Source of the DNA: Holothuria scabra
Taxonomy: Eukaryota; Echinodermata; Holothuroidea; Aspidochirotida; Holothuriidae
Direction: 5' to 3'
DNA: 64,000 bases
Assembly: GCA_037179385.1 (NCBI GenBank)
Contig: CM074193.1
Span: 40,518,846-40,582,845 of the forward strand
Positions 6,071 through 61,876 of the stretch are shown piece by piece (within the stretch, counting starts at the first letter, position 1; each line of letters begins with the position of its first letter). Made by a program: the position numbers and the translations under genes. Below the pieces are notes generated by a model. It did not search any database, was not told the origin of the DNA, and saw only the letters and a list, made by a program, of their open reading frames with translations.

Positions 6071-6290
6071 CCTTTGGGGAAGACTTCCCTCCCCCTGATG
6101 TTGAGAAAATCCAATTTCATCGGGGATCTTTCATCTACAGGCCCACGATAAAAAAAATGTGGGTCTGCTGACTTCAGTCACCCCGACGGTCTTCTTGATT
6201 TTGCTTACTAGAAGACCATATTCTTCAAGGAAACTGAAAATTCCAAGTTTTCCTTACAAAAACGAACGAGAGGTTGTTCGTGTACATGCA

Positions 6291-6735
6291 GTGCCCAATG
6301 GTACTTTTTCCAAAGTCCTCCCGACCCTATGGCGAAGGGCCGTTCGGCGAAACCAAACTTAAACTGCTTCCCGAAGAAGCTATATACGTTAACTGAAGGA
6401 CAACCAACCTCATGACCTTCAGACCATTTATTGGTCTGTCTTGTATGACTCAATTCTAGTCTGGCTGAAAAGAACAGATGCTACACATGATCTTAGCATT
6501 GTCCAGTGGTACTTTTTCCAAAGTCCTCCCGACCCTCTGGCAAAGGGCCGTTCGGCGAAACCAAACTTGACACTGCTTCCCGAACAAGCTCCACTTAAGG
6601 ACAACACTTGACTAACCTGAAGGCCTTCAGACCATTTACATTATTGGTCTGTCATGCATGGATCCATTCTAGACTGGATGAAAAGAACAGATACTTCCCT
6701 TGATCTTAGCCAAAAGGCCGAGAAGCATTGCCCAA
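6291..6735 (-). repeat. Tandem repeat headed by U2 snRNA sequence (two units)
   Basis: Two units with a ~208-bp period share GTACTTTTTCCAAAGTCCTC, AAGGGCCGTTCGGCGAAACC and a TTCAGACCATTTA block. On the minus strand, 6726-6683 of the second unit reads as nt 4-47 of canonical U2 snRNA with two mismatches (GCTTCTCGGCC..., GGCTAAGATCAAG, GTATCTGTTCTT). The first unit has the same head with an internal deletion (about 6496-6465). After the U2 nt ~47 equivalent both units switch to an unrelated body shared with 23540-24115. A bona fide U2 gene would continue into the branch-recognition and Sm regions, which are absent. Confidence 0.75.
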
Positions 6736-16397: not shown

Positions 16398-17400
16398 TTA
16401 TATTTTAGATCTTCTCTGATCATAAGGAACTTTATTTTGTCTTGTTTGCTTTTCCATATTTTGTTTTGCTGCAGCAAGCATTACTTCATGCGCTACAGCC
16501 CCCTGGTCCTGCAACACTTCCATCCATTCCCCCGGACCTTTAATGTCCCGCCCCAAAAACAACTGAGAAGGTGAAAACTTAGTGGCATCATGCTTAAAGG
16601 AATTGAGGGCAAACATAAATTCAAAAAGATGTTGGTCCCAGTCAGCATGATCCGGAGCGACGAAACAGCAGAGCATTGAGACAAGATTTCTATTCACTCT
16701 TTCTACCCAATTTGATTGGGGATGGTACGGTGTTGTAAAAGCCCTTTTTACTCCCCACAGAATGCACATGTTTGCAACAGCTTTAGACACCATCTGAGGA
16801 CCATCATCAGAAACTATGGTCTTACATGCCCCCCCCCCCCCAACAAACAAAATAGCTGTCTTAGAATCGAAGCAAGCACTTTACCCGATGCTCTTTTCAA
16901 TGGATATAACAAGCAAAATTTTGAAAAGTGATCTGTTACTACAAGAATGTTTTTTTTTAATTACCATCACGACTTTGTGGAAATGGTCCCACTTAGTCCA
17001 TCGCAAGGACCTCCCAGGGGGCTGTTGTTACAGTAGACTGCATAAAGCCTGGGGGCTTCTGGTAGACTGGTTTGCAGAATTGACATACTCTACACTTCTC
17101 AATAAAAGATTCTTCGTCATTCTTCATGTTCTTCCACCAAAATCTCTCAAAAATCTTAGTTACAGTTTTCCTAATTCCCATATGGGGATAGATGGGTGAA
17201 CAATGATAATGAGTAACAACATCCTGGACTAGACTTGTAGGTACCACCACCTTAGAGGAGCCATTCGCAGAGGGCCCAACATACTTTAAAATACCATCCT
17301 CAGAACGGAATCGTTTAGACACTGCTCCTACGTCAGAGCTAGAACGTAGTTTATTAACAACATCAGCTATGAATGAGTCATTCCTTTGTTCTGAAATAAA
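16398..17400 (-). pseudogene. Integrase of the Ty3/gypsy element, broken
   Basis: The N-terminal HHCC zinc module is visible (H-x3-H-type histidines in HYHCSPIYPHMG, cysteines in CRVCQFC). The catalytic core follows: the first Asp in LAMD (~16993), the second in VSDDGPQ, and the Glu in WVERVNR within the frame 16850-16398. Between 16993 and 16850 the frame has a stop straight after LAMD and at least two frameshifts, one at a G/C run near 16830. Integrase would insert the cDNA; this copy cannot. The C-terminal region (YDQRRSKI) ends near 16398, leaving ~200 bp to the polypurine tract. Confidence 0.85.
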
Positions 17401-17469
17401 CTTGTTCATGTCTGGGAAAACACTTTCTACCTTGTTCACTGTCTGTTTACTTGATGTCATAGCAGGAGA

Positions 17470-17616
17470 ACATTTATCACAAAAATATTCATCTAAGTTA
17501 TCAACTTCCTTTAAATTAAGGCCCAGACAAAATAAGTGGAACCACTTATCGCACCCATCACACTTAATCCAGTTTACTGTCTTAGAGGGGTCTCCTTTGC
17601 AGTCTGGATAAAAACA
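17470..17616 (-). pseudogene. PHD-type zinc finger between RNase H and integrase
   Basis: Within the frame 17784-16993, residues 57-105 carry a C4HC3 arrangement: C57 and C62 (x4), C75 and C78 (x2), H83, C86, then C102 and C105. The hydrophobic WFH-x2-C core (KWFHLFC) and an acidic stretch before FCDKC are typical of PHD fingers, which read histone H3 tails in chromatin proteins. The first spacing (x4 rather than x1-2) is slightly unusual. All eight ligands are intact though the polyprotein is dead. In a retrotransposon the module could steer integration to chromatin marks; that role is inference. Confidence 0.75.
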
Positions 17617-17639
17617 CACATTTTTGTCATAATCCACAG

Positions 17640-18303
17640 ACCCTACTACTGCTCTAGACAAGGCGCCAGGGACGACATTTTGAGCCCCAGGTCTGTTGTG
17701 TACTGAGTAATCGTATTCTTGGAGCTTTGAAGCCCATCTCACTAATTTGCCTTTGAGATCTTTACTACGCAACATCCATACCAACGCCTGATGCTCAGTG
17801 TTAACTGTTGTATGATTACACTCTATATATGGACGCCATTTTTCAAATGCCCAAACGACCGCAAGACATTCGAATTCAGTGGCAGAGTAATTTTTTCTGC
17901 TGGTTTGAGACTTCTAGATGCAAAGGCAATACCTTTTAATTTCACCATTGACATTTCTTTGGGCTAACACTCCACCAAGACCTGTAGAACTAGCATCTGT
18001 ATGAATTTCAAAATCACTTTTGAAGTCCGGAATTGTAAGAGAAACTTCCCTTGATACCTCTGCCTTTAACCTACGAAATGCTTCCTCACAATCTGGTGTC
18101 CAGTCCCACACAATATCTTTCTTCCTTAATCTGTTCAACGGTGCAACAATATCAGCATAATTTTTAACAAATTCAGAGCACCAACCGGACAACCCTAAAA
18201 ATCTTTCCAGCGCCTTCTTACTGGTTGGAGCAGGAAATCTTTGTACAGCCTCGCATTTTGCAGGATTCAAGTGTATACCCTCACTATCTACAATATAGCC
18301 CAA
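17640..18303 (-). pseudogene. RNase H of the Ty3/gypsy element, broken
   Basis: The frame opens with the RT thumb/connection (FLGLSGWCSEFVKNYA...), then the RNase H start FEIHTDASSTGLGGVLAQ with the first catalytic Asp. A frame break near 17914 separates NYSATEFECLAVVWAFEKW, containing the catalytic Glu. The TDH motif reads TEHQAL, and the usual ...DALSR end reads PGALSRA, so two conserved acidic positions differ. The domain degrades the RNA strand during reverse transcription. Confidence 0.82.
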
Positions 18304-18306
18304 CTA

Positions 18307-19052
18307 CTTGACTTGTTTACAAAGAAGATTACACTTAGTAGGGTTTGCAGTCAGACCTGCATGTCTGAGACGTTCCAAAACCTCTCTCAAGTCTTGGATG
18401 TGGGTCTCAATATTTGGGGAATGTATTACAATGTAATCAATGTAAGGATAACAAAATTGTCTCTCATTACTAATTGGTCAACGATATCAACAAGATTTTG
18501 AAAATATTGACTAGCATTTTTAAGCCCAAAGGGTAGTCTTTTGAAGAAAAATACCCCCTCCTCACAGACAAATGTAGTTTTGTATTGGTCATCCGGGTGT
18601 ACAAGGGTTTGCCAAAATCCTGCTTTCAAGTCTAAAGTGGAAAATACTTTTGAATCACACATTGAGTATAAAATTGACTCAATAGTGGGAATAGGATAGT
18701 TTGAAGGTTTCGTGACCGAGTTCAGAGCACGATAGTCTACAGCTAATCTGTAGGTTCCATCTGGTTTATCAACCATAACTACTGGGCTAGACCACTCAGA
18801 CTGAGAAGGACTAATAACATCTAGGTCTAACATTTCATTAATTTGCTGTCTTAAACTTTCCCGCTTCTTTTTCGGTAACTTGTATCGGCGTTTTTCAACT
18901 GGTTTAGCATCTCCTGTATCAATACGATGCTGAAATAGAGTACAACAACCTGGCTTATCGAGGAAAACATCACTATTATCACTCATTATTTCACTCACAA
19001 CATGTTCATACCCTTCAATCTTTTTGTTTACTGTGGGACAACTCTTCCTCAA
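18307..19052 (-). pseudogene. Reverse transcriptase of the Ty3/gypsy element, catalytic site mutated
   Basis: The core includes SEWSSPVVMVDKPDG, FSTLDLKAGFWQ with the first catalytic Asp, and FKRLPFGLKNA. A frameshift lies near 18470. The catalytic Y-x-D-D box at 18433-18444 reads YIDY, so the second Asp is Tyr. A TAG at 18304-18306 ends the frame before LGYIVDSEGIHLNP. These changes make the enzyme non-functional. Confidence 0.9.
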
Positions 19053-19145
19053 TATCTTCAGCTTTAGAGATACCGTGTTTTACTTGATAACACTGCTGAC
19101 CCACCAGACTATCTTTAACAACATTAGTATAATTCCCAATCCACA

Positions 19146-19640
19146 CTAAGGAAATTTAATTTGTGGAATGTCATTTGTCCAGTAAACATTATTACACATA
19201 TCAAATGTCACAGAGAATTTCAGTAACAAGTCTCTGCCAATTAAGACTGGACATGGGATATCAGCCATGAAAAGTTCAACATCATGTTCTTCCCTGCCAG
19301 CAATAGAAATAGACGAAATCATCTTACCAGCGACTGTCACCGGTGTTCCATCCAACAGCGATAGTCTAAGGGGCTCTTCCAGAGGTTTGAAACAATCCTT
19401 TGGCACAACAGACGGATGTACAAGGGATTTTGCTGCACCCGTATCCGCATACGCCAACAAATTCATGCCATTCAAATTCAACTCAAAGTAGGCACCATCC
19501 AACTGAGGTTTACATGTATTATCCAAATATTTCCGATCCGGGAGATGCATCATGTCTTCATGACGATCCTCATTAGAAAGCCTCACGAGATTAATAGTAG
19601 AATTTTGTGAATTCGGACAGTTATAACTTAAATGACCCAC
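19146..19640 (-). pseudogene. Zinc knuckle and aspartic protease
   Basis: The frame begins inside a CCHC zinc knuckle (C-N-E-V-G-H-x4-C). The first knuckle Cys lies across a frameshift and reads as Ile. The protease follows with the catalytic AYADTGAAKSLVHPS and the flap/ILG-equivalent region CPVLIGRDLL. The enzyme would act as a homodimer and cut the polyprotein. A TAG at 19146-19148 interrupts pol; readable sequence continues beyond it and shifts frame before RT. Confidence 0.85.
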
Positions 19641-20609
19641 CTCATTACAAGAATAAATCGGGGTTGCCTCGTAGGTGATCTTGATTTTCCAGAGGCAGGT
19701 CCTTGCTGTAGACTACCAGCGTCATTTGCTGAATTTGGGTTGTCAATGTCTTGGGTTCTCTTCCTACACGAGGTACGAGCGACAGTTATATTATCAGCAA
19801 ACTGGGTTAGATCCTCCAGATTTGACCATTTGTGTTCTAACAACTTCATCCTCAATGTAGCATCACCCAAGGAATGAATCATTTGGCTCGCTATTACTTT
19901 TTCCATCACAGAAACAAACTCAGCATTTGACAACAAGTTGTCGGAAGGTTTTGTCGACCTCCTAAAAACAGGCTCAGACGACTTCCATATTGACCGAAAG
20001 TTTCTGTCGAAGATTTAGTCACTAATCTGAATTTTTCTCTATAGGAATCCGGAGTCAACTTGTAAGCGGTAAGTATAGCCTCCTTGACAATCAAATAGTC
20101 TTCCTTCTGATGTTCTGTCAGTACATGGAAAGCTTTCTGGGCTTTCCCAGTAAGATATTCTAGAAGTAGTGTCCACCTTGAGCTAGGAATATTTCGACTT
20201 TTCACTCGCCTCTCAAAACTAGTGAGATAACACTCTAAATCGTTTTCTGCACCCAAGGGATGAAACCCACGCAACTTATATTCAACGTTAGAAGAATTCG
20301 TTTGTGCAGGAACATCTCTTAACTTTGGAACAGTTTGCAATGCATTAATTCGTTCTTCCTTTGTTTTTAACCCCTTTATGTCTATGTGGTCTGCAATGCA
20401 CACGTCCTTAAAATAAGCCTGTGGAGTGTGTTCACTGCAAAGCTGATGCCACTGTCTCTGCGTGTGTGCACGTAACCCTTTAGCCGAGTGGTGCAGATAT
20501 TTTAGCTTAAAATAAGCCTGTGGGGTGTGTTCACTGCAAAGCTGATGCCACTGTCTCTGCATGTGTGCACGTAACCCTTTAGCCGAGTGGTGCAGATATT
20601 TTAGCTTAG

Positions 20610-20863
20610 CCCTTTACCGTTGTGCTCCGATCGGGGCATATTTAAGCGCCTCGGCAATGGTCGGAAAAGCGGACGTAGCCCGCCCCGCATCGGCTTCCGT
20701 AGGCCATTGACCCCGTGACCTCAAACTACTGTCCTTCTCGTTGGTGTGTGGCCGAATTTCCGGGTAAGCTCCTCGCAGTTTCGAGCTCCGCGTGAAACAG
20801 TAAAGATGGATAACAGCCGAGCTCTCCGCATGGGTCCGAAAGAACCCAAACAACGGTAAAGGG
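20610..20863. mobile_element. TTAA (piggyBac-like) MITE in gag, copy 1
   Basis: 254 bp with inverted ends CCCTTTACCGTTGT... / ...CAACGGTAAAGGG. The right flank is TTAA (20864-20867); the left is TTAG (20606-20609), one base off. CCCTTT-type ends at TTAA match the piggyBac superfamily. No transposase. Confidence 0.85.
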
Positions 20864-20966
20864 TTAAAATATGCCTGTGGAGTGTGTTCACTGCAAAGCT
20901 GATGCCACTGTCTCTGCATGTGTGCACGTAACCCTTTAGCCGAGTGGTGCAGATATTTTAGCTTAG

Positions 20967-21220
20967 CCCTTTACCGTTGTGCTCCGATCGGGGCATATTT
21001 AAGCGCCTCGGCAATGGTCGGAAAAGCGGACGTAGCCCGCCCCGCATCGGCTTCCGTAGGCCATTGACCCCGTGACCTCAAACTACTGTCCTTCTCGTTG
21101 GTGTGTGGCCGAATTTCCGGGTAAGCTCCTCGCAGTTTCGAGCTCCGCGTGAAACAGTAAAGATGGATAACAGCCGAGCTCTCCGCATGGGTCCGAAAGA
21201 ACCCAAACAACGGTAAAGGG
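20967..21220. mobile_element. TTAA MITE in gag, copy 2
   Basis: Exactly 357 bp from copy 1 and, by eye, identical to it, including the TTAG left flank mutation. It therefore arose by tandem duplication of the composite unit, not by an independent insertion. Confidence 0.85.
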
Positions 21221-21323
21221 TTAAAATATGCCTGTGGAGTGTGTTCACTGCAAAGCTGATGCCACTGTCTCTGCATGTGTGCACGTAACCCTTTAGCCGA
21301 GTGGTGCAGATATTTTAGCTTAA

Positions 21324-21574
21324 CCCTTTACCGTTGTGCTCCGATCGGGGCATATTTAAGCGCCTCGGCAATGGGCGGAAAAGCGGACGTAGCCCGCCCC
21401 GCATCGGCTTCCGTAGGCCATTGACCCCGTGACCTCAAACTACTGTCTCCCTCGTTGTTGTGGCCGAATTTCCGGGTAGCTGCTCGCAGTTTCGAGCTCC
21501 GCGTGAAACAGTAAAGATGGATAACAGCCGAGCTCTCCGCATGGGTCCGAAAGGACCCAAACAACGGTAAAGGG
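21324..21574. mobile_element. TTAA MITE in gag, copy 3 (best preserved flanks)
   Basis: 251 bp, CCCTTTACCGTTG... / ...CAACGGTAAAGGG, flanked by perfect TTAA at 21320-21323 and 21575-21578. It differs from copies 1 and 2 at several positions, including short deletions. The sequence to its right returns to the start of gag, so this copy joins the N-terminal coding segment to the repeat array. Confidence 0.88.
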
Positions 21575-21698
21575 TTAATTTTCTCATCTAGCATATACTT
21601 GAGGTGAGGATAACGTTCCCCCTCTGGACTCTCGGCTCCATCCAAAATTGGTAAGATAAAATGTCAAAACATTCAGCTCGGCTGTCTCGCCGCTCCGG

Positions 21699-22236: not shown

Positions 22237-22858
22237 AAAAATACCCATTATTGCTGGGCACTATTGTTATGGACAGAACTTATTTAAACTTCAAATATTC
22301 AGGGCGCCGTCCAAAGTATAAAAACAGAGCGTCTAACCGGAACAGTTGGCATAACGACACGTCATTGTCATATAAACTATTTCTATCGCTCGTCACCCGT
22401 CACCCTAAAAATCGTCACCTTGGTTTTATTTGAATTTATCGTCAATTACGTCACGTCAAGATTCGCTCACGAGGCCCAACGTTGTGAGTATATCATATTT
22501 ACGTGGTTAATTAATAACTTATGATTAGTTTTAGTAATTTACTTAATAGTTACAAAGACTTTCGTTAAGTTCCGAAGAAGTTGCGTCTTCGCTGTAGGGG
22601 AGGGCGGATCCCGTATGAAAGTATATGCTACGAACCAAGTGAACGATTTACGATTGTACATCTTACAATTGCCTGATTGGAATTAATGTAACCATTTCCT
22701 TTCTTTGCTTTATTTACTATCAATTTTTTAGCGTTTTATTATTTATTCGTTCAGTAGTAATAGGTTTATTATTATATTTCACGCACTCATAAACTTACAC
22801 CAGTTACGTATAGGTTTCGATCCATATCGTGTACGACATTCTTTGGCATAGGTATTAA

Positions 22859-23154
22859 AGGGCAAAACCTCTCACCCCAAATTATAATTTTGGTACGAGG
22901 GTACCAAAATTCTCAATTGGCTCAGCCATTTGATTGACAATTAATTCAAACAATTCAGAGTACCAAAGCCTTTATTACACAGCATGAACGTTACTGAGAG
23001 TGTTCTGATTATATAAATTGAGTTTTTCTTAACTCAACTTGAAGCAATAAACTGAGAATGTATCTTAATTAGCATGAATTTCAGGCACTTGTGGGAGGGG
23101 CTTAAGTAAGAAGGTTAGGAGAATTAGTACAGTTTGGGGTGAGAGACTGGGCCT
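22859..23154. mobile_element. TTAA MITE, family B, copy 1
   Basis: 296 bp between TTAA at 22855-22858 and 23155-23158. Imperfect inverted ends: AGGGCAAAACCTCTCACCCC at the left, GGGGTGAGAGACTGGGCCT at the right. A near-palindrome TTTTGGTACGAGGGTACCAAAA lies inside. The relative at 59882-60173 has the same size and boundaries. Confidence 0.78.
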
Positions 23155-50294: not shown

Positions 50295-50527
50295 TTAGAG
50301 CGGAGCTGTCGACTTATTAAAACCAAGCATTTGTCTGGCAACTTCCTCCCAAGATGTCAGACCTAGATAGTAATCCTTCACACTGTACAGGCTTCCTTGC
50401 TGATCCAACCACTTCTCCAAGGGTACTAAAAAATCACCAACTAGGTCCTTCTCCAAATATTCATTAATAAAGACATACACCAGCCATGTTGAGAAAAATG
50501 TCAGGAAAGCTTCAGCAGCAACTTGTC
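50295..50527 (-). CDS. Terminal exon of an unidentified minus-strand gene
   Basis: On the minus strand, acceptor TTTCATCAG is followed by 233 bases ending at TAA (50297-50295). The reading runs from GQVAAEAFLTFFSTWLVYVF, through NEYLEKDLVGDFLVPLEKWL, to YYLGLTSWEEVARQMLGF and a short tail. It is a mostly helical, amphipathic stretch with ordinary protein composition and no low-complexity runs. I do not recognise the family. The frame upstream to 50693 is intron. Earlier exons must lie at higher coordinates; the 58901-59080 frame on the same strand is one candidate. Confidence 0.6.
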
Positions 50528-51101
50528 CTGATGAAACAAGAGATAGCAGGACCATATTAATTTGCATATAATTAACATTTAATAAGGTTTTATGGCAAGA
50601 GCAGTCATCACAAACATTTTGAAAGATTAACCAGAAAGCCAAAAGGCTTAGTGATTCCTTGCCACTGAAATTTAAGCTTATCTTTTTTTTCAAATTGACA
50701 GTGCTCCATAATGTTTTTCAAAGTGACAGTGCTCCATAATGTACCCACAAAGTATACATGCAAGGCATCAAAGCTTCCTATAAGAACTGGGGTTCTGCTC
50801 ATGATATCACATCCACATGTGTGAAATTTTGCAGTATCCAAGACTCCAACCATGGGAAATTTGTGTACTTGATATTGAGATTTTGACCCCATGTGAACAA
50901 AAGTGACATTTGATGTCCACCAAAATCTATAGGGATCATTTATTCACCATGCATCATCTACATGTCAAGTATGAGGACCCTACAAATTACATTTCTTGTA
51001 ATATTATGCATATATTGTGTATATTGGATAGTGGATATTGTGTATCTCAAGAATGGTACATGGGACTGATCCTATATATGGGGTGTGGATTGGTCATATT
51101 G

Positions 51102-51503
51102 AGTAGATGATTCCTCTCGATTTCTGTGGAGGTCAAAGGTCATTTGGGATCACGAGAGCTCAAATGGTAAATTCCTCAGAAATTGCTTGTAAACAAGCAA
51201 TTTCTGCTGTGTTGTGTTGTGATATTGTACCTTTTGACCTCTTGTGACTCCCAAATGACCTTTGACCTCCACTAAAAAAAAAACACAACAAAAACAATCT
51301 TATACTCAATATGGCCAACACACCAAATGTGATGAGGATCATCTACTCAATATGGCCAACCCACACACCAAATATGAGATTAGTCACACTTGCCCTTCTT
51401 GAGATACTCTGTTCACAAGCAATTTCTGAGGAATTTACCATTTGAGCTCTCGTGATCCCAAATGACCTTTGACCTCCACAGAAATAGAGAGGAATCATCT
51501 ACT
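51102..51503. mobile_element. Foldback with ~94-bp inverted arms
   Basis: 51102-51195 (AGTAGATGATTCCTCTCGAT...) is the near-perfect complement of 51410-51503 (...GAGAGGAATCATCTACT). Each arm carries one AGGTCAAAGGTCA string in opposite orientation (51130 and 51473); a third, 51256, lies in the loop. It looks like a foldback-type duplication of satellite sequence at the array edge. Confidence 0.78.
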
Positions 51504-51689
51504 TAATATGTTGACCAATCAGTCTTTAAAACGGTTCAAACCCTTTTAATTTTATTGATCTCAAGACACCTGAACAGGAAGTTCTCTGATAGATTCTGGA
51601 TTAAGAGTGGTCAACTAGAGATGGCGAAAACTTGCTATTCATTTCTAGCGTCACGGATCAGTCACATGTACCATTCTTGAGATATTGTG

Positions 51690-53320
51690 TTTACAAGGTT
51701 TTGACCTTTTGACCTCTTGTGACTCCCAAATGACCTTTGACCTCCACCAAAATATATCCCGTTCTTTCCTACATCTTAACGCATCAAAATATCAAGTTTG
51801 AAATAAATCCAAGTTTCCTACCATGAGATATCGTGTAAATAAGGATTTCAGGGTTTGACCCCACGTGACCCCAAATGACCTTTGACCTCCACCAAAATCA
51901 ATAGGGTTCTTCCTAACATCATAATGCATCAACATATCAAGTTTGAAATTAATCCAAGTTTCCTACCATGAGATATTGTGTAAATAAGGATTTCGGGGTT
52001 TGACCCCAAATGACCTTTGACCTCCACCAAAATCAATAGGGTTCTTCCTTACATCATAACGCATCTACATATCAAGTTTGAAATTAATCCAAGTTTTCTA
52101 TCTTGAGATATTGTGTAAACAAAGATTTTGATTTTTGACCCCCTGTGACCCCAAATGACCTTTGACCTCCACCAAAATATATCCCATTCTTTCCTATATC
52201 TTAACGCATCAACACATCAAGTTCGAAATAAATCCAAGTTTCCTACCATGAGATATCATGTTAATAAGGATTTTGGGGTTTGACCCCACATGACCCCAAA
52301 TGACCTTTGACCTCCACCAAAATCAATAGGGTTCTTCCTAACATCATAACGCATCAACATATCAAGTTTGAAATTAATCCAAGTTTCCTACCATGAGATA
52401 TCGTGTAAACAAGGATTTCGGGGTTTGACCCCACGTGACCCCAAATGACCTTTGACCTCCACCAAAATCAATAGGGTTCTTCCTAACATCATAATGCATC
52501 AACATATCAAGTTTGAAATTAATCCAAGTTTCCTACCATGAGATATTGTGTAAATAAGGATTTCGGGGTTTGACCCCAAATGACCTTTGACCTCCACCAA
52601 AATCAATAGGGTTCTTCCTTACATCATAACGCATCTACATATCAAGTTTGAAATTAATCCAAGTTTTCTATCTTGAGATATTGTGTAAACAAAGATTTTG
52701 ATTTTTGACCCCCTGTGACCCCAAATGACCTTTGACCTCCACCAAAATATATCCCATTCTTTCCTACATCTTAACGCATCAACACATCAAGTTCGAAATA
52801 AATCCAAGTTTCCTACCATGAGATATCATGTTAATAAGGATTTTGGGGTTTGACCCCACATGACCCCAAATGACCTTTGACCTCCACCAAAATCAATAGG
52901 GTTCTTCCTAACATCATAACGCATCAACATATCAAGTTTGAAATTAATCCAAGTTTCCTACCATGAGATATCGTGTAAACAAGGATTTCGGGGTTTGACC
53001 CCACGTGACCCCAAATGACCTTTGACCTCCACCAAAATCAATAGGGTTCTTCCTAACATAACGCATCAACATATCAAGTTTGAAATTAATCCAAGTTTCC
53101 TACCATGAGATATCATGTAAATAAGGATTTTGGGGTTTGACCCCATGTGACCCCAAATGACCTTTGACCTCCACCAAAATTATTAGGGTTCTTCCTTACA
53201 TCATAACGCATCTACATATCAAGTTTGAAGTTAATCCAAGTTTTCTATATTGAGATATTGTGTAAACAAAGATTTTGGTTTTTGACCCCCTGTGACCCCA
53301 AATGACCTTTGACCACCACC
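51690..53320. repeat. Satellite: ~145-bp monomers, 570-bp higher-order repeat, nuclear-receptor half-sites
   Basis: TGACCTTTGACCT starts at 51731, 51876, 52011, 52156, 52301, 52446, 52581, 52726, 52871, 53016 and 53158, and with one change at 53303. Steps are 145 bp except two of 135 and one of 142. 51860-52430 recurs nearly unchanged 570 bp later, so four monomers form a higher-order unit. Many monomers read TGACCC-N4-TGACCC-N4-TGACCT-T-TGACCT, that is DR4, DR4, DR1. CACGTG sits in the first spacer at 51862, 52432 and 53002. Monomer bodies share ATCAAGTTTGAAATTAATCC and CCTACCATGAGATAT. No coding. Confidence 0.92.
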
Positions 53321-53427
53321 AAAATAAATAAGGTTCTTCCTCTCAGTAAGGGGTATCTGTGTACCAAGTTTGAGAACTGTCAGACTTTCCCTTCTCAAGA
53401 TATTGTGTAAACAAGCAAAGTGTCACA

Positions 53428-53489
53428 AACACACACACATACACACACACATACACACGCACATACACACATACATACACACACACGCC
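53428..53489. repeat. CA/CATA microsatellite
   Basis: ACACACATACACACACACAT-type repeat closing the satellite array on its right side. Confidence 0.9.
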
Positions 53490-56092
53490 ATCATGAATGC
53501 ATAGGTTTCTCTTTTCATCGAAACCAAAAATGACTCATCAAGACTGAGAAAGGCAAACCACCACTTTTGTTACTGCAAGGTAAATTGAAAATAGATGAAA
53601 TTTTTAGCTATATGTATTTGTGTACTTTAACACAGTTTCAGCAGTCAGAAGTCACCTGAAGACCTAGCACATTATCATCCCTGGCATTGCAGCACTTGCC
53701 ATTGAATACTAAATCTTAGAAAAACATGCATGTTCAAAAAAATTTGTACAAATTTATAGTTAGCTTAAAGTGAGAGACTCAGTCAGGTTTTAGAGCTACT
53801 TTAGTCATATTCATATGATGTCCTTGCTTAGTGTGACAGAATGCTTGATGAAAAATCTCAGTAAAAGGGTAGACCTAAAAAGGAACTTGACCCTAGTGAG
53901 ATGACCTTGTGAGCAATACGGCATTATGTTGAAAAAAAAATGAAAACTATCAATGGTTTGATTCATCAATGAAATGGCTTCACTCAGGACTGGAGTAGAC
54001 ACGACGGGACTCTAGGTGATTTTCTCTTACTTTCTCATATTTGAAAGCTTTTCCCACAGTATTCAACTATAATATTGAAACTACAAAAGGCTGGCAAAAG
54101 CTAACAGGTTAAGAATTTCACAACTTCAGATGTTCAGATGTCCAGGGCTGGAGTTAACTGAGGTTCCAGAAGTGCAGGGCCATTTCTCCATCAGTTTCAA
54201 GGGCATGCCATGTGAACTAGAGGGCACCAAGGCCATACAAGTGGTTTTATACTGACCACAATGTAATCTCACAGTAATAGGCACTGACACCATATGGCCT
54301 TGATTTTCAATTAAGTTTATAGGGCAACAAGCTGCCAAAAATATGAAGGCCATGGCCTTTCTGGCCTTCGATTAATTGCCCTATGTGTCTTAGTATTTTC
54401 AAGCTAGGATGTGTTATCTAGGGCTATAAGGGGTGGATGGAGGGTATGTGATCTTGATTGTTTTTTTTTATAAATGATGATTACATCAGAAGGATTTCCA
54501 ATACATTTTGTCTTGAAGAAATGTGCAGGTCTTTATCCAACAACTGCATGTAACACAAACTGAGAATTACAGCACAAGGAATATGAGTAGTTTTTTAGCA
54601 GTACTTTTACAGACCTATGTAGCCACACCTGTAACACTTAAACTTAACAATTTCAGTTTTGCTGAGCCTAGATGTATAACAGAACTTGCTGTTGTGCTTG
54701 GTGCTCAGCATAAGCAATGGCCAGGGTAGGGAAACCAAGCCAGTGAGTCTTAATCGGTGCAAAAATAAGAAATAGTAACTAGTTTGCGCCATGCAAATTT
54801 CTTGAACCTGAACTGAAAAAAAGGCTGTGGCCAGCTCGGCTTGAACCAACTGGTTGGAAACTGGGCTTTAAAACTTCTACTTGACTAACTTGCATGCATT
54901 TTAATTTGTTTAACTATTTTATGATGAATATCAACGTGCATGAGTTAAGTTTGGTTCAATCATGGGTACACAAATAAATAACTGAAAAAATGACCATCCC
55001 AGTCCAATTAAAATCTTGATGCTCAAACATTCACTCAAAATACAAACTAGAACAGCAATGCTGTTGTAGCTCACACATTCTCTCTTGTCTGTAAAAAATA
55101 GCAACTCAAAGAACCAACTTTTATTTCTTCTTCATCTGTTTCCACAAAACCTCCTTACCATAACAATGGCAAATAACAGGTACAAAATGACCAAAGAACT
55201 CAAAACCCTACTGCAAAATCACAAGGTATGCTAAAAGTCCCCCTCAGCTCCCTCTTTCAAAAAGTGCAAACTTTTACATCAGAAAGAAAACAACCTACTG
55301 TAATTGACAGATCTACAAATACTACTGCGAAAGTTTGTAAAATTAAGAAACCCTGTTGGGCTATACAAACTTAATTAGGACCATTTTGGAAAAATTCTAA
55401 ATATGTAGAATGTATCAAGCATATTTTAAAGTACTGCAAAGTACATTTAGTTTCTCCTATAACTCCATAAGAAACACTGTGTGAATTTGCACTGGTAAAA
55501 TAAAAACATGCATCGCTCCTCAAATGGCTCTCCTACTGCACTTGAACTCAATAAGTTATCACAATTACTTGCCTTGACCAACTTGATTGATCTAGAAACA
55601 GAACAGATGTCCCCACTTACATTAAGCCTATTTCCTTTCTTGTAGGCTACACTTGACCACAGAATTGCTCCCAATTTTGTGTGTCAAGTATCCCTAGCTG
55701 CTCAGTCCATGAAAGCTCTCTTCACAATACAGTGCTATTATCCCAAGACACTGTGATTGCAGAAACCACTGATCCGTGTCCACAGGTGAGTTAGACATCA
55801 AACAACAGTCTGCTTGCAAGGCATTTGCAAGACAGCAATTGAACACACAACCAAGTAGCTGCAGTCAACACAATGAATAAACAGCTAACTGTTAAGCAGG
55901 CACAATGAACTCTGCTCTACATAAATAGCTAAAAAATTATGCTTAACACTCCTACATTGGAATGAAAGTAGGTGGGTTATAATGCTGTACTGACAAACAA
56001 TCATATACCAAAATTTCAGAACGAAATCTTCACAAATGGAAAGGGAGCAGGCTTTTGTTAAAAAGTTGACGCCATCTGGCCTATTTTATAAC

Positions 56093-60322: not shown

Positions 60323-61876
60323 TCAATTTACATATTTGATTTCTAATAGTTTCAATATATGGGGAGTAATTACGGCTGAGGGTAAGCAATTCCACTCTGT
60401 CACTGTCCTAGGAATAAAAGAGAACTTATAACAGTCCTTTTTTACAGCAGGGAGATGAAAGGAGATCGACGAAGACTTGCGAGTGGAGATTTCATTATTG
60501 TCGGGCTTAAAAATATATCCGTTTAGATCAAATGGCAACTTTATAAGTGATGGAGAGACTTGTATACAGTAAGCTCAACCTTGCACTGGTCCTTCGTTCC
60601 TCCAAAGTAGACCAGTTTAAGTCAGCAAGCATTGATGATACACTACTTTTACGCCCTTGGTCTTTACAGACGAATCTGGCAGCTCTGCGTTGCCCTGCTT
60701 CAAGCTTGTTTATATGCTCCTGATGGTACGTAAGGATCCCAAATACTTGAGCAGTACTCCAATCTTGGTCTAACAAGGGATTTATAAGCAGCTTCCTTAA
60801 CTTTTGGGGAACAACTGTACAGGCTACGACGTAACAAGCCAATGACTCTGTTTGCTTTGGAAGTTATTCCGTTTATGTGATCGGCCCAGCTTAATTTACT
60901 GTTAATAGAGTGGCGGATTTAGGGGGGTGACTAGGGTGGCTAGCCACCCCCCTTTTTTGACCAAAAAAAAATAATAAAAAGTATGCATTGTTTTCACATG
61001 CTATCGTCTTCCTATTATTATTTCCTATGGAACGCGAACAAAAATTTTAAAAGTACATGTTTAAAAGTGAATTAATTAAAATGTTAAATTCAGCAACACC
61101 AAAGACTAATTTATTTCTGGCAGTCTGGTACGAACATAGAAAAGAGCTTGAAGGCGCAACCGTATTACAGGCGAAATACTTATTTTTTCTGAAATATTTA
61201 GAACCCAAATCCTAGCCACCCTCTTTTTAAAACCCCAGATCCGCCACTGTAATATCCACTCCAAGATAAGTATGGCTGGGAACTGTTTGTAGAAACTATT
61301 GTTCATTTCATAAGCAGTTAATAGAGGTTTCTTTTTATGAGTAACACGCATAGCAAAGCACTTAGAAACATTAAATTTCATTTGCCATTTAGATTTCCAT
61401 TTGCAGAGACTATTTATATCATTTTGTAGCGAGATACTATCTTCCATTGAAGTAATTTCGCGATACAGGATACAATCGTCTGCTAAAAGTCGAACTTGGG
61501 ATGATAATCCATCAGGTAGGCCATTAAGGTAAAAGATAAAAAGTAAGGGGCCCAGCACTGTACCCTGAGGGACTCCAGAGGTAACAGCTATAGATGAAGA
61601 TGTAGCACCGTCAAGAACTACTTGTTGCGTCCTTTGAGTGAGAAAGTTCTTAATCCAAGTGTGAAGAGTGCCCGGAATACCAAAATGTTCTAACTTTAAC
61701 ATTGAAGTCTTTGGTGTGGGACTAGCTAGGTCAAAAGTTTTGCTGAAATCCAGAATTATATGACATCAACCTGACCTTGTTTGTCTAAAATTTTGGCAAG
61801 GCCATCTATAGTTAAGGCAAGTTGGGTTTCACAGGAGCGACCCTTGCGGAAGCCATGTTGCTCATCGTTAAAGGGA
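60323..61876 (-). pseudogene. LINE (CR1/Jockey-type) reverse transcriptase 3' half, split by a MITE
   Basis: Minus-strand blocks in order: HGFRKGRSCETQLALTIDGL (61870-61800); a frameshifted D-F-S-K-type segment; LEHFGIPGTLHTWIKNFL; SGVPQGTVLGPLLFIFYLNG; the catalytic RLLADDCILYR; and MKFNVSKCFAMRV (61702-61270). After the MITE at 60908-61249 the thumb and tail resume with LSWADH, YKSLVRPRLEY, LEAGQRRAARFV and FIPRTVTEWNCLPSA, to a stop near 60323. The catalytic box has the normal AspAsp with Leu in front. The endonuclease half is missing, as in 5'-truncated LINE insertions. Frameshifts make it dead. Confidence 0.85.
60908..61249. mobile_element. GTGGCGGAT-ended MITE inserted in the LINE
   Basis: Ends GAGTGGCGGATTTAGGGG and CCCCAGATCCGCCACTG are inverted with few mismatches. 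TAATA flanks both sides (60903-60907 and 61250-61254). Removing it rejoins the LINE reading frame (Y-L-G-x-D-I to the S-W-A-D-H block), giving an independent boundary test. Confidence 0.85.

What the first reader, a model, noticed from the sequence alone, without database searches (positions are those of the whole stretch)
51690..53320. Satellite whose monomer is a nuclear-receptor response-element cassette
Seen: about twelve monomers, each with TGACCTTTGACCT (complement AGGTCAAAGGTCA), a perfect DR1. Many also have two upstream TGACCC half-sites spaced by 4, giving DR4-DR4-DR1, and some have CACGTG in a spacer. Known: DR1 is the RXR/HNF4/PPAR-type site, and DR4 is used by other RXR partners. 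Inference: the array could act as a receptor sponge, a hormone- or lipid-responsive heterochromatin domain, or a source of enhancers. The ~145-bp monomer is also close to nucleosome length, so each nucleosome could present one cassette.
Basis: partly seen in the sequence, partly recalled or inferred. Interest (0 to 1): 0.75.

Follow-up and report, generated by a model that had tools for sequence, protein, structure and literature searches.

The report
Sea-cucumber rolling-circle transposon with receptor motifs
The repeats are the inner array of a known type of jumping gene in what is most likely a sea cucumber; elements of this kind appear to have scattered tens of thousands of perfect hormone-receptor-type DNA motifs through the genome, with no sign yet that the animal itself keeps those motifs intact.

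Summary
In detail: 12 DR1-bearing monomers at 51708-53341, 11 with a perfect DR1 and 9 with DR4-DR4-DR1. It is not a free-standing satellite. In 20 of 20 fetched loci (the best matches, so a biased set) the array is the core of one mobile element with shared ends, microsatellite, subterminal inverted repeats, 3' palindrome and no target duplication of 2 bp or more. This is the published layout of a non-autonomous Helentron (HINE). The genome matches Holothuria scabra. The window copy (50629-53530) is a chimera of two HINE types joined inside the conserved core. Perfect DR1 occurs 93,824 times in 1.19 Gb, against 145 for the reversed motif and 44,052 for the adjacent core 13-mer. Half-sites carry private mutations about as often as the rest of the monomer, so host selection on inserted copies is not supported. 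Common variants avoid the whole 33-bp core, not the DR1 in particular. The DR1 is therefore kept during element evolution. Receptor occupancy is untested, and no autonomous partner was identified.

The parts
50629..53530 (-). Whole mobile element copy (HINE). True 5' end at 53530, true 3' end at 50629. Chimera of a type-2 3' part and a type-1 array and 5' part.
   Evidence: 5' terminus shared by 19 of 20 related loci, with one-base changes in L102, L104 and L115; type-2 3' end shared with L108, L112, L118; type switch at 51731-51752.
53526..53530 (-). Terminal T5 (AAAAA on + strand), true 5' terminus.
53515..53525 (-). 5' subterminal inverted repeat GGTTTCGATGA (TCATCGAAACC on + strand); its partner in type-1 copies sits 24 nt from the other end.
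   Evidence: exact in 18 of 20 loci (5') and 19 of 20 (3')
53504..53525 (-). 5' inverted repeat/hairpin GGTTTC-10 nt-GAAACC, one arm nested in the subTIR.
   Evidence: present in 17 of 20 loci; -4.0 kcal/mol, z -1.8, 10 of 200 shuffles fold as well
53424..53486 (.). CACA/CACATA microsatellite between the 5' unit and the array.
51708..53341 (-). Central tandem array, 12 DR1-bearing monomers (mostly 145 bp; two spacings of 135, one of 142).
51731..51752 (-). Conserved core where type-2 sequence switches to type-1; identical to both families here. Also the first DR1.
   Evidence: upstream 93% to B (71 aligned), 76% to A (54 aligned); downstream 94% to A (115 aligned), 80% to B (51 aligned)
51654..51730 (-). 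Last type-2 (family B) half monomer, half-sites TGACCT-TT-TGACCT-CTTG-TGACTC.
51511..51653 (.). Unrelated 143-bp interspersed repeat inserted in a type-2 monomer.
   Evidence: 39 other scored copies at 95-99% identity (40 candidates scored of 2,737)
51042..51510 (.). Inverted pair of type-2 monomer pieces (arms 101 bp 97% and 70 bp 83% complementary), each side with a DR1 (51130, 51463); a further DR1 lies between the arms at 51256.
50822..50965 (-). Decayed monomer whose DR1 is broken (TGACATTTGATGT).
50653..50663 (-). Type-2 3' subTIR (GATTCCTTGCC on + strand).
50636..50649 (-). Type-2 3' palindrome AAGCC-AAAA-GGCTT near the true 3' terminus.

Best explanation
The array is the central minisatellite of a non-autonomous Helentron (HINE, rolling-circle transposon) in a sea cucumber, most likely Holothuria scabra. 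Inferred mechanism: Rep/helicase (and endonuclease) made by autonomous relatives acts on the paired subterminal inverted repeats and end hairpins, copies the element by rolling circle and inserts it into A/T runs without target duplication. Monomer number changes by unequal exchange or replication slippage, and families recombine in register through the conserved core. The DR1 is part of a roughly 31-33 bp core kept while the rest of the monomer diverges. Once a copy has inserted, the DR1 mutates about like everything else. About 94,000 perfect DR1 sites have thus been spread, mostly as passengers of such elements (the share that lies in elements was not counted). They can in principle bind receptors of the RXR/HNF4/COUP-TF type, but nothing here shows that the host uses or maintains them.
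For: Shared 5' terminus in 19 of 20 and shared 3' terminus in 20 of 20 fetched copies (36-40 of the first 40 bases), with unlike flanks. 0 of 20 copies have a target duplication of 2 bp or more; 3 have a 1-bp match. Related empty sites exist for 2 of 20 copies, with insertion in an A run and no duplication (L100 against L117, 90.5% over 306 columns; L104 against four places, 78-82%). The parts come in the published HINE order: 5' subTIR exact in 18 of 20, nested IR in 17 of 20, 3' subTIR in 19 of 20, 3' palindrome in 20 of 20. A second type differs in both arms of the palindrome and in both subTIRs together. 2,133 exact copies of the type-1 5' terminus, reversed control 0. Ends are young: median pairwise divergence 2.0% (3' unit, 20 copies) and 3.5% (5' unit, 19 copies). 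The genome has 69 matches to the Helitron Rep domain PF14214, several in open frames above 2,000 aa. Singletons are not depleted in the DR1: 7 in 13 sites against 56 in 102.
Against: No autonomous partner with the same ends was found: of 29 Rep matches on C1 none lies within 10 kb of the 80 exact termini on C1, the nearest being 14.9 kb away (exact termini only, one chromosome). The 20 loci are the best matches, so truncated or free-standing arrays are under-sampled. The window copy lacks the type-1 3' end. Empty sites are diverged relatives: in L100 the filled site lacks five A-rich bases that the empty site has, and the L104 comparisons have gaps near the junction, so small target changes cannot be ruled out. 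DR1 is more widespread than its neighbour in the core (93,824 against 44,052), and its only common variant in family A is the spacer base (T to A, 20 of 456). Both are what receptor binding would predict.
Confidence: 0.86

Rival explanations
1. Element-level selection for receptor binding: the HINE keeps the DR1 because a host nuclear receptor binding it opens chromatin or drives transcription in cells where transposition occurs, so copies with good sites spread more.
For: Four monomer families that are 68-86% identical overall all keep TGACCTTTGACCT (consensus of 11, 14, 10 and 5 monomers). In 72 relatives outside the main arrays the DR1 matches at 94.5%, the rest of the core at 85.7%, outside at 70.9%. 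DR1 is 2.1 times as frequent as the adjacent core 13-mer. The only common DR1 variant in family A is at the spacer base. A functional precedent exists: C. elegans Helitrons carry HSF-1 sites (abstract).
Against: The conserved core extends to CCACCAAAAACAATAGGG, which no receptor half-site explains; DR1 and the rest of the core do not differ in common variants (p = 1.0). The families were segmented on the motif, which favours its retention. In one search, where relatives were found by their spacers, the DR1 (92.1%) is little above the mean spacer identity (89.1%). No occupancy or expression data.
Confidence: 0.2
2. The core is a recombination or replication module (array expansion, monomer exchange, Rep/RPA handling) and its likeness to a DR1 is incidental.
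For: Type-2 and type-1 monomers are joined exactly in the core. The 10-bp TGACCYYNNN unit gains and loses copies (135-bp spacings). The oyster HINE paper reports two conserved segments shared by otherwise dissimilar monomers and suggests motif-guided monomer replacement (passages).
Against: One chimera only; a switch inside the most identical stretch is also what plain homology gives. No biochemical link.
Confidence: 0.45
3. Host-maintained receptor sponge, hormone-responsive domain or enhancer bank.
For: About 94,000 perfect sites, the same order as the 108,582 consensus DR2s of the human genome, 90% in Alu. A sink role has been proposed for HNF4-alpha sites in Alu.
Against: No depletion of singleton mutations in half-sites; a decayed monomer at 50822-50965 has a broken DR1; type-1 termini are scattered along C1 rather than forming one domain.
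Confidence: 0.06
4. A conventional heterochromatic satellite unrelated to mobile elements.
For: Tandem 145-bp monomers near nucleosome length.
Against: Arrays of about 2.0-5.1 kb with shared element ends in 20 of 20 fetched loci; over 2,000 termini genome-wide.
Confidence: 0.03

Closest known systems
Cg_HINE elements of the Pacific oyster (PMC7492417, passages; related satellitome paper PMC8268682, passages)
   Same: Same order of parts: subTIR with nested IR, microsatellite, satellite-like array, second subTIR and palindrome; no TSD; groups that share ends but differ in monomers; two conserved segments in otherwise dissimilar monomers.
   Different: Here in what is most likely an echinoderm; monomers mostly 145 or 156 bp; the perfect DR1 core. 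Whether oyster monomers carry the same core could not be checked (figures not held).
DINE-1/INE-1 and mite HINEs (PMC4067079, passages)
   Same: subTIRs, IR nested in the 5' subTIR, microsatellite, central repeats, 3' stem-loop, T-rich target, no target modification. The paper also names sea urchin among genomes with DINE-1-like elements.
   Different: Different sequences; 3' subTIR 24 nt from the end here against about 38-60 bp in the mite; autonomous partner not identified here.
Helitron-borne heat-shock elements in Caenorhabditis (PMC6927752, abstract and outline)
   Same: Rolling-circle transposons that carry many copies of a host transcription-factor site.
   Different: [quoted passage not shown] here no binding data.
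Alu-driven expansion of DR2 and HNF4-alpha sites in primates (PMC1785376 and PMC3252374, abstract and one section of each)
   Same: A non-autonomous element spreads 10^5 or more nuclear-receptor sites; the sink idea is already in print there.
   Different: Alu is a retrotransposed SINE (recalled), with DR2 sites largely created by CpG deamination; here the site is a conserved part of a tandem monomer.

Membership tests
HINE (non-autonomous Helentron) | No coding capacity | tested here: met
   17 stop-to-stop frames of 50 aa or more overlap 50629-53530; the two longest (140 and 111 aa) run out of the element at its edge, those wholly inside are 67 aa or less. Only 50295-50717 was searched for domains, with no Pfam hit.
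HINE (non-autonomous Helentron) | Subterminal inverted repeats at unequal distances from the two ends | tested here: met
   GGTTTCGATGA / TCATCGAAACC, 5 and 24 nt from the ends; exact in 18 of 20 and 19 of 20 loci. The window copy has a type-1 one at 53515 and a type-2 one at 50653, which do not pair with each other.
HINE (non-autonomous Helentron) | IR nested in the 5' subTIR, and 3' palindrome | tested here: met
   IR in 17 of 20 loci, palindrome ATGCA-AAAA-TGCAT in 20 of 20; both arms differ together in type 2. DNA folding: 5' hairpin weak (z -1.8), 3' z -3.6, one type-2 5' end z -4.1.
HINE (non-autonomous Helentron) | Microsatellite next to a central tandem array | tested here: met
   53424-53486 and 51708-53341.
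HINE (non-autonomous Helentron) | T-rich target and no target-site duplication | tested here: met
   0 of 20 with 2 bp or more; empty sites for 2 of 20 copies, diverged and with small gaps at the junction.
HINE (non-autonomous Helentron) | Autonomous Rep/Hel/endonuclease partner with the same ends | tested here: inconclusive
   69 PF14214 matches exist; none of 29 on C1 within 10 kb of the 80 exact termini there; other chromosomes and inexact ends not tested.
Nuclear-receptor response element (DR1) | Two AGGTCA half-sites spaced by one base | tested here: met
Nuclear-receptor response element (DR1) | Receptor occupancy or activity in vivo | not testable with these tools
   No ChIP or expression data.
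Nuclear-receptor response element (DR1) | Half-sites under more constraint than their surroundings | tested here: inconclusive
   Singletons: no difference; common variants: depleted over the whole core, not specifically the DR1; DR1 more widespread than the neighbouring 13-mer; only common DR1 variant is the spacer.
Satellite DNA (long free-standing arrays) | Arrays not bounded by element ends | tested here: not met
   20 of 20 fetched loci have element ends; biased to best matches.

The most novel reading that the evidence does not exclude
A rolling-circle transposon superfamily has turned a host nuclear-receptor site into a conserved working part of its monomer. Several HINE families keep the perfect DR1 while the rest diverges because receptor binding helps their spread. 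As a by-product they have seeded about 94,000 high-affinity DR1 sites, enough to rewire or buffer lipid and hormone signalling in sea cucumbers.
Probability: 0.17. Interest if true: 0.78.

Novelty: new member of a known kind. Interest (0 to 1): 0.45.

Why it matters
It moves the array from satellite to transposon and puts numbers on a very large amplification of one receptor motif in what is most likely an echinoderm. It also makes the element-versus-host question directly testable: if receptors bind these arrays, sea cucumbers become another large natural case, beside Alu, of transposons spreading nuclear-receptor sites. If they do not, it is a clean example of a textbook motif conserved for transposon reasons, and a warning for motif-based enhancer prediction in genomes rich in such elements.

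Tried and rejected
Free-standing satellite: rejected for the 20 fetched loci, which all have element ends. MITE with target duplication or SINE: rejected for lack of target duplications and because the terminal A run (+ strand of the window) has a nearly constant length. Host-level purifying selection on the DR1: not supported by singletons; the 95% Poisson range of 7 singletons is 2.8-14.4, so only strong depletion is excluded, and assembly errors may be among the singletons. Exact 15-mer AAATGACCTTTGACC in viral contigs: 78 stretches, each with one match, probably chance (my judgement; the collection's base count was not given), not followed. A looser core pattern in viral contigs and one in prokaryote contigs: 0 hits each. 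Text searches for core sequences: one search gave 10 papers, of which one (PMC7161275, passage) lists sea cucumber (H. leucospilota) qPCR primers with the core and one (PMC11239237, passage) is an unrelated cloning primer, the other eight seen only as listings; one search gave one sunflower paper and five papers, none on a marine invertebrate by title. My recollection that bivalve repeats carry a similar core is recalled and untested. A forkhead-like RYAAAYA in the second conserved stretch (367 of 456 family-A monomers) was judged weak: by a rough estimate of mine chance gives one in about a quarter of monomers. (9, 0 and 4 papers, listings only) showed no title on satellite-borne receptor sites.

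Not answered despite repeats: the DR1 count with one mismatch, GTGACCCCAAATG and TGACCTNTGACCT; TGACCTTNGACCT was asked once and not answered.

Full report
WHAT IS THERE. The window holds a tandem array at 51708-53341 with a 145-bp period and 11.4 copies. It has 12 DR1 motifs, 11 perfect and one with a single mismatch. Nine of 12 monomers have two further TGACCC half-sites upstream, each spaced by 4 bp, and 3 of 12 have CACGTG in the spacer. Nineteen matches with up to two mismatches occur in the window against 2.13 expected. The half-sites are 10 bp apart, and the two 135-bp spacings lack one such 10-bp unit. So the DR4-DR4 arrangement looks like copy-number change of a 10-bp internal unit (inference).

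ORGANISM. The window's assembly has 1,192,178,128 bases in 31 contigs, and contig C10 is 53,516,681 bases long. A published Holothuria scabra assembly has 31 scaffolds, 1.19 Gb and a scaffold N50 of 53.52 Mb (PMC11082199, passages). A related species, H. sanctori, differs (1.17 Gb, 46 scaffolds; PMC12754360, passages). I infer that the window is from H. scabra.

A MOBILE ELEMENT, NOT A SATELLITE. The genome search gave 112 matches from 40 scored candidates of 4,341. I fetched 20 loci of 10 kb around the best of them, so the set is biased to intact copies. In 19 of 20 the homology ends at the same terminus (window 53530; one-base changes near it in L102, L104 and L115) and unlike sequence follows; in L106 the terminal hairpin is lost. 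On the other side all 20 start with the same sequence (36-40 of 40 bases), about 195 bp before the array in most; L108, L115 and L118 are rearranged behind that start. Arrays range from about 2.0 to 5.1 kb and 15-36 monomer hits. Read on the minus strand of the window, the element is: T5, subTIR GGTTTCGATGA with a nested inverted repeat GGTTTC/GAAACC, microsatellite, array, subTIR TCATCGAAACC, palindrome ATGCA-AAAA-TGCAT, TCTGGTT. Exact counts over the 20 loci: 5' subTIR 18, IR 17, 3' subTIR 19, palindrome 20. None of 20 copies has a target duplication of 2 bp or more; three have a 1-bp match. Joined flanks matched existing empty sites for two copies: L100 against L117 (90.5% over 306 alignment columns), and L104 against the window, L116, L110 and L101 (78-82%). 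Both show insertion in an A run without duplication, but the comparisons carry small gaps at the junction (five A-rich bases in L100), so fine detail is uncertain. Folding gives z-scores of -1.8 and -3.6 for the type-1 ends and -4.1 for one type-2 5' end. Median pairwise divergence of the ends is 2.0% (3' unit, 20 copies) and 3.5% (5' unit, 19 copies, L106 left out).

This is the published layout of non-autonomous Helentrons (PMC4067079, passages; PMC7492417, passages). The exact type-1 5' terminus occurs 2,133 times in the genome against 0 for its reversed control; the 80 on C1 are spread from 1.1 to 78.9 Mb. The genome has 69 matches to the Helitron Rep domain, some of them pieces of one locus. 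None of the 29 on C1 lies within 10 kb of the 80 exact termini there; the nearest is 14.9 kb away. The autonomous partner is therefore not identified.

A SECOND TYPE AND A CHIMERA. Related arrays (B and D, 145 bp; C, 156 bp; consensus from 14, 5 and 10 monomers) have the same core. Where their ends could be read they are of another type: subTIR GATTCCTTGCC/GGCAAGGAATC and palindrome AAGCC-AAAA-GGCTT, both arms changed together. One complete element of this type is L108 703-2393, though one of its subTIRs has a single change; some other ends are imperfect or truncated (L106, L112, L117). The window copy starts at 50629 with a type-2 end and finishes at 53530 with a type-1 end. Before the core at 51731-51752 the sequence is 93% type-2 B (71 aligned bases) and 76% type-1 A (54 bases); the core is identical to both; after it the sequence is 94% A (115 bases) and 80% B over only 51 bases. 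It is therefore a chimera joined in register at the core. Whether the chimera itself has moved was not shown. A separate 143-bp repeat with 39 other scored copies sits at 51511-51653.

HOW MANY MOTIFS. The perfect DR1 occurs 45,861 + 47,963 = 93,824 times, against 65 + 80 for the reversed motif. The adjacent core 13-mer ACCTCCACCAAAA occurs 44,052 times, against 42. How many of the DR1s lie inside elements was not counted. For scale, the human genome has 108,582 consensus DR2 motifs, 90% of them in Alu (PMC1785376, abstract and one section; that count uses a degenerate consensus and a larger genome, so it is not strictly comparable).

IS THE MOTIF SELECTED? I took 498 monomers from the 20 loci and the window, kept 456 with at most 20 gaps and 448 above 80% identity. 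The DR1 window is the second most conserved of 133 13-bp windows (1.0% non-consensus against a mean of 8.3%). But singleton variants, which I take as mostly recent, are as common in the DR1 (7 in 13 sites) as in the rest (56 in 102 sites; columns 63-72 are in neither class). Variants seen 1-3 times give 16 in 13 sites against 109 in 102. Variants seen 20 times or more are rare across the whole 33-bp core: 4 of 33 sites against 42 of 102, p = 0.0027; DR1 alone 1 of 13, p = 0.030; DR1 against the rest of the core p = 1.0. The one common DR1 variant is the spacer base, T to A in 20 of 456, which fits receptor binding but is a single site.

In 72 relatives outside the main arrays the DR1 matches at 94.5%, the remaining core at 85.7% and the rest at 70.9%. 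When relatives are found by their spacers instead of the core (64 of 73 outside the main arrays used, the other 9 aligning too far from the core), the DR1 matches at 92.1%, the remaining core at 80.9% (which includes bases that differ between families), with a mean spacer identity of 89.1% to the family consensus; 35 of 64 have an exact DR1. So the core is kept over the evolution of the element families, while inserted copies show little or no protection of the half-sites.

INTERPRETATION. Best supported: a HINE whose monomer core contains a DR1, spread as a passenger. Shown: ends, two empty sites, copy numbers, two types, chimera, mutation pattern. Inferred: rolling-circle mobilisation by a Helentron, and the reason for core conservation. 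Open: receptor binding. Precedents exist for rolling-circle elements carrying functional factor sites (PMC6927752, abstract) and for Alu carrying receptor sites with a proposed sink role (PMC3252374, abstract and one section).

PRINT CHECK. Text searches for the core sequences, for satellite plus nuclear receptor, for sea cucumber plus satellite plus Helitron, and for transposable elements with DR1/HNF4 (top 12 of 73 listed) showed no report of DR1-bearing Helentron arrays by title or passage; most subscription papers are not in the held library.

Searches were made for this.

Noticed in passing
window 6288-6729: Rfam U2 snRNA match (6542-6729, minus strand, 57.6 bits) overlaps a 208-bp tandem duplication at 6288-6710 (81% matches), perhaps two U2-derived copies.
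   Followed up: no
window 16398-19712, minus strand: Gypsy-type retrotransposon pieces in several frames; one frame has a PHD finger between the RNase H and integrase zinc-binding domains.
   Followed up: no
window 61106-61765, minus strand: Reverse-transcriptase fragment; family not determined.
   Followed up: no
window 51511-51653: A very uniform 143-bp interspersed repeat; 39 other scored copies at 95-99% identity on many contigs, probably recently active.
   Followed up: partly
window 20407-21578: Tandem repeat with a 357-bp unit (3 copies, 98% matches) in a GC-richer stretch beside the Gypsy pieces.
   Followed up: no
family B monomers; window 51704-51743: The family B consensus has five same-strand half-sites in a row (TGACCT-TT-TGACCT-CTCG-TGACCC-CAAA-TGACCT-T-TGACCT), so DR2, DR4 and DR1 spacings together; the window copy has a changed third half-site.
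   Followed up: partly
monomer columns 41-52: A second conserved stretch has a forkhead-like site, TGTAAACA or TGTAAATA in family A and TGTTTACA, the reverse complement of the first, in families B, C and D. May be chance.
   Followed up: partly
window 22854-22965: Member of the repeat family into which the L104 copy of the element inserted; it gives an empty site.
   Followed up: yes
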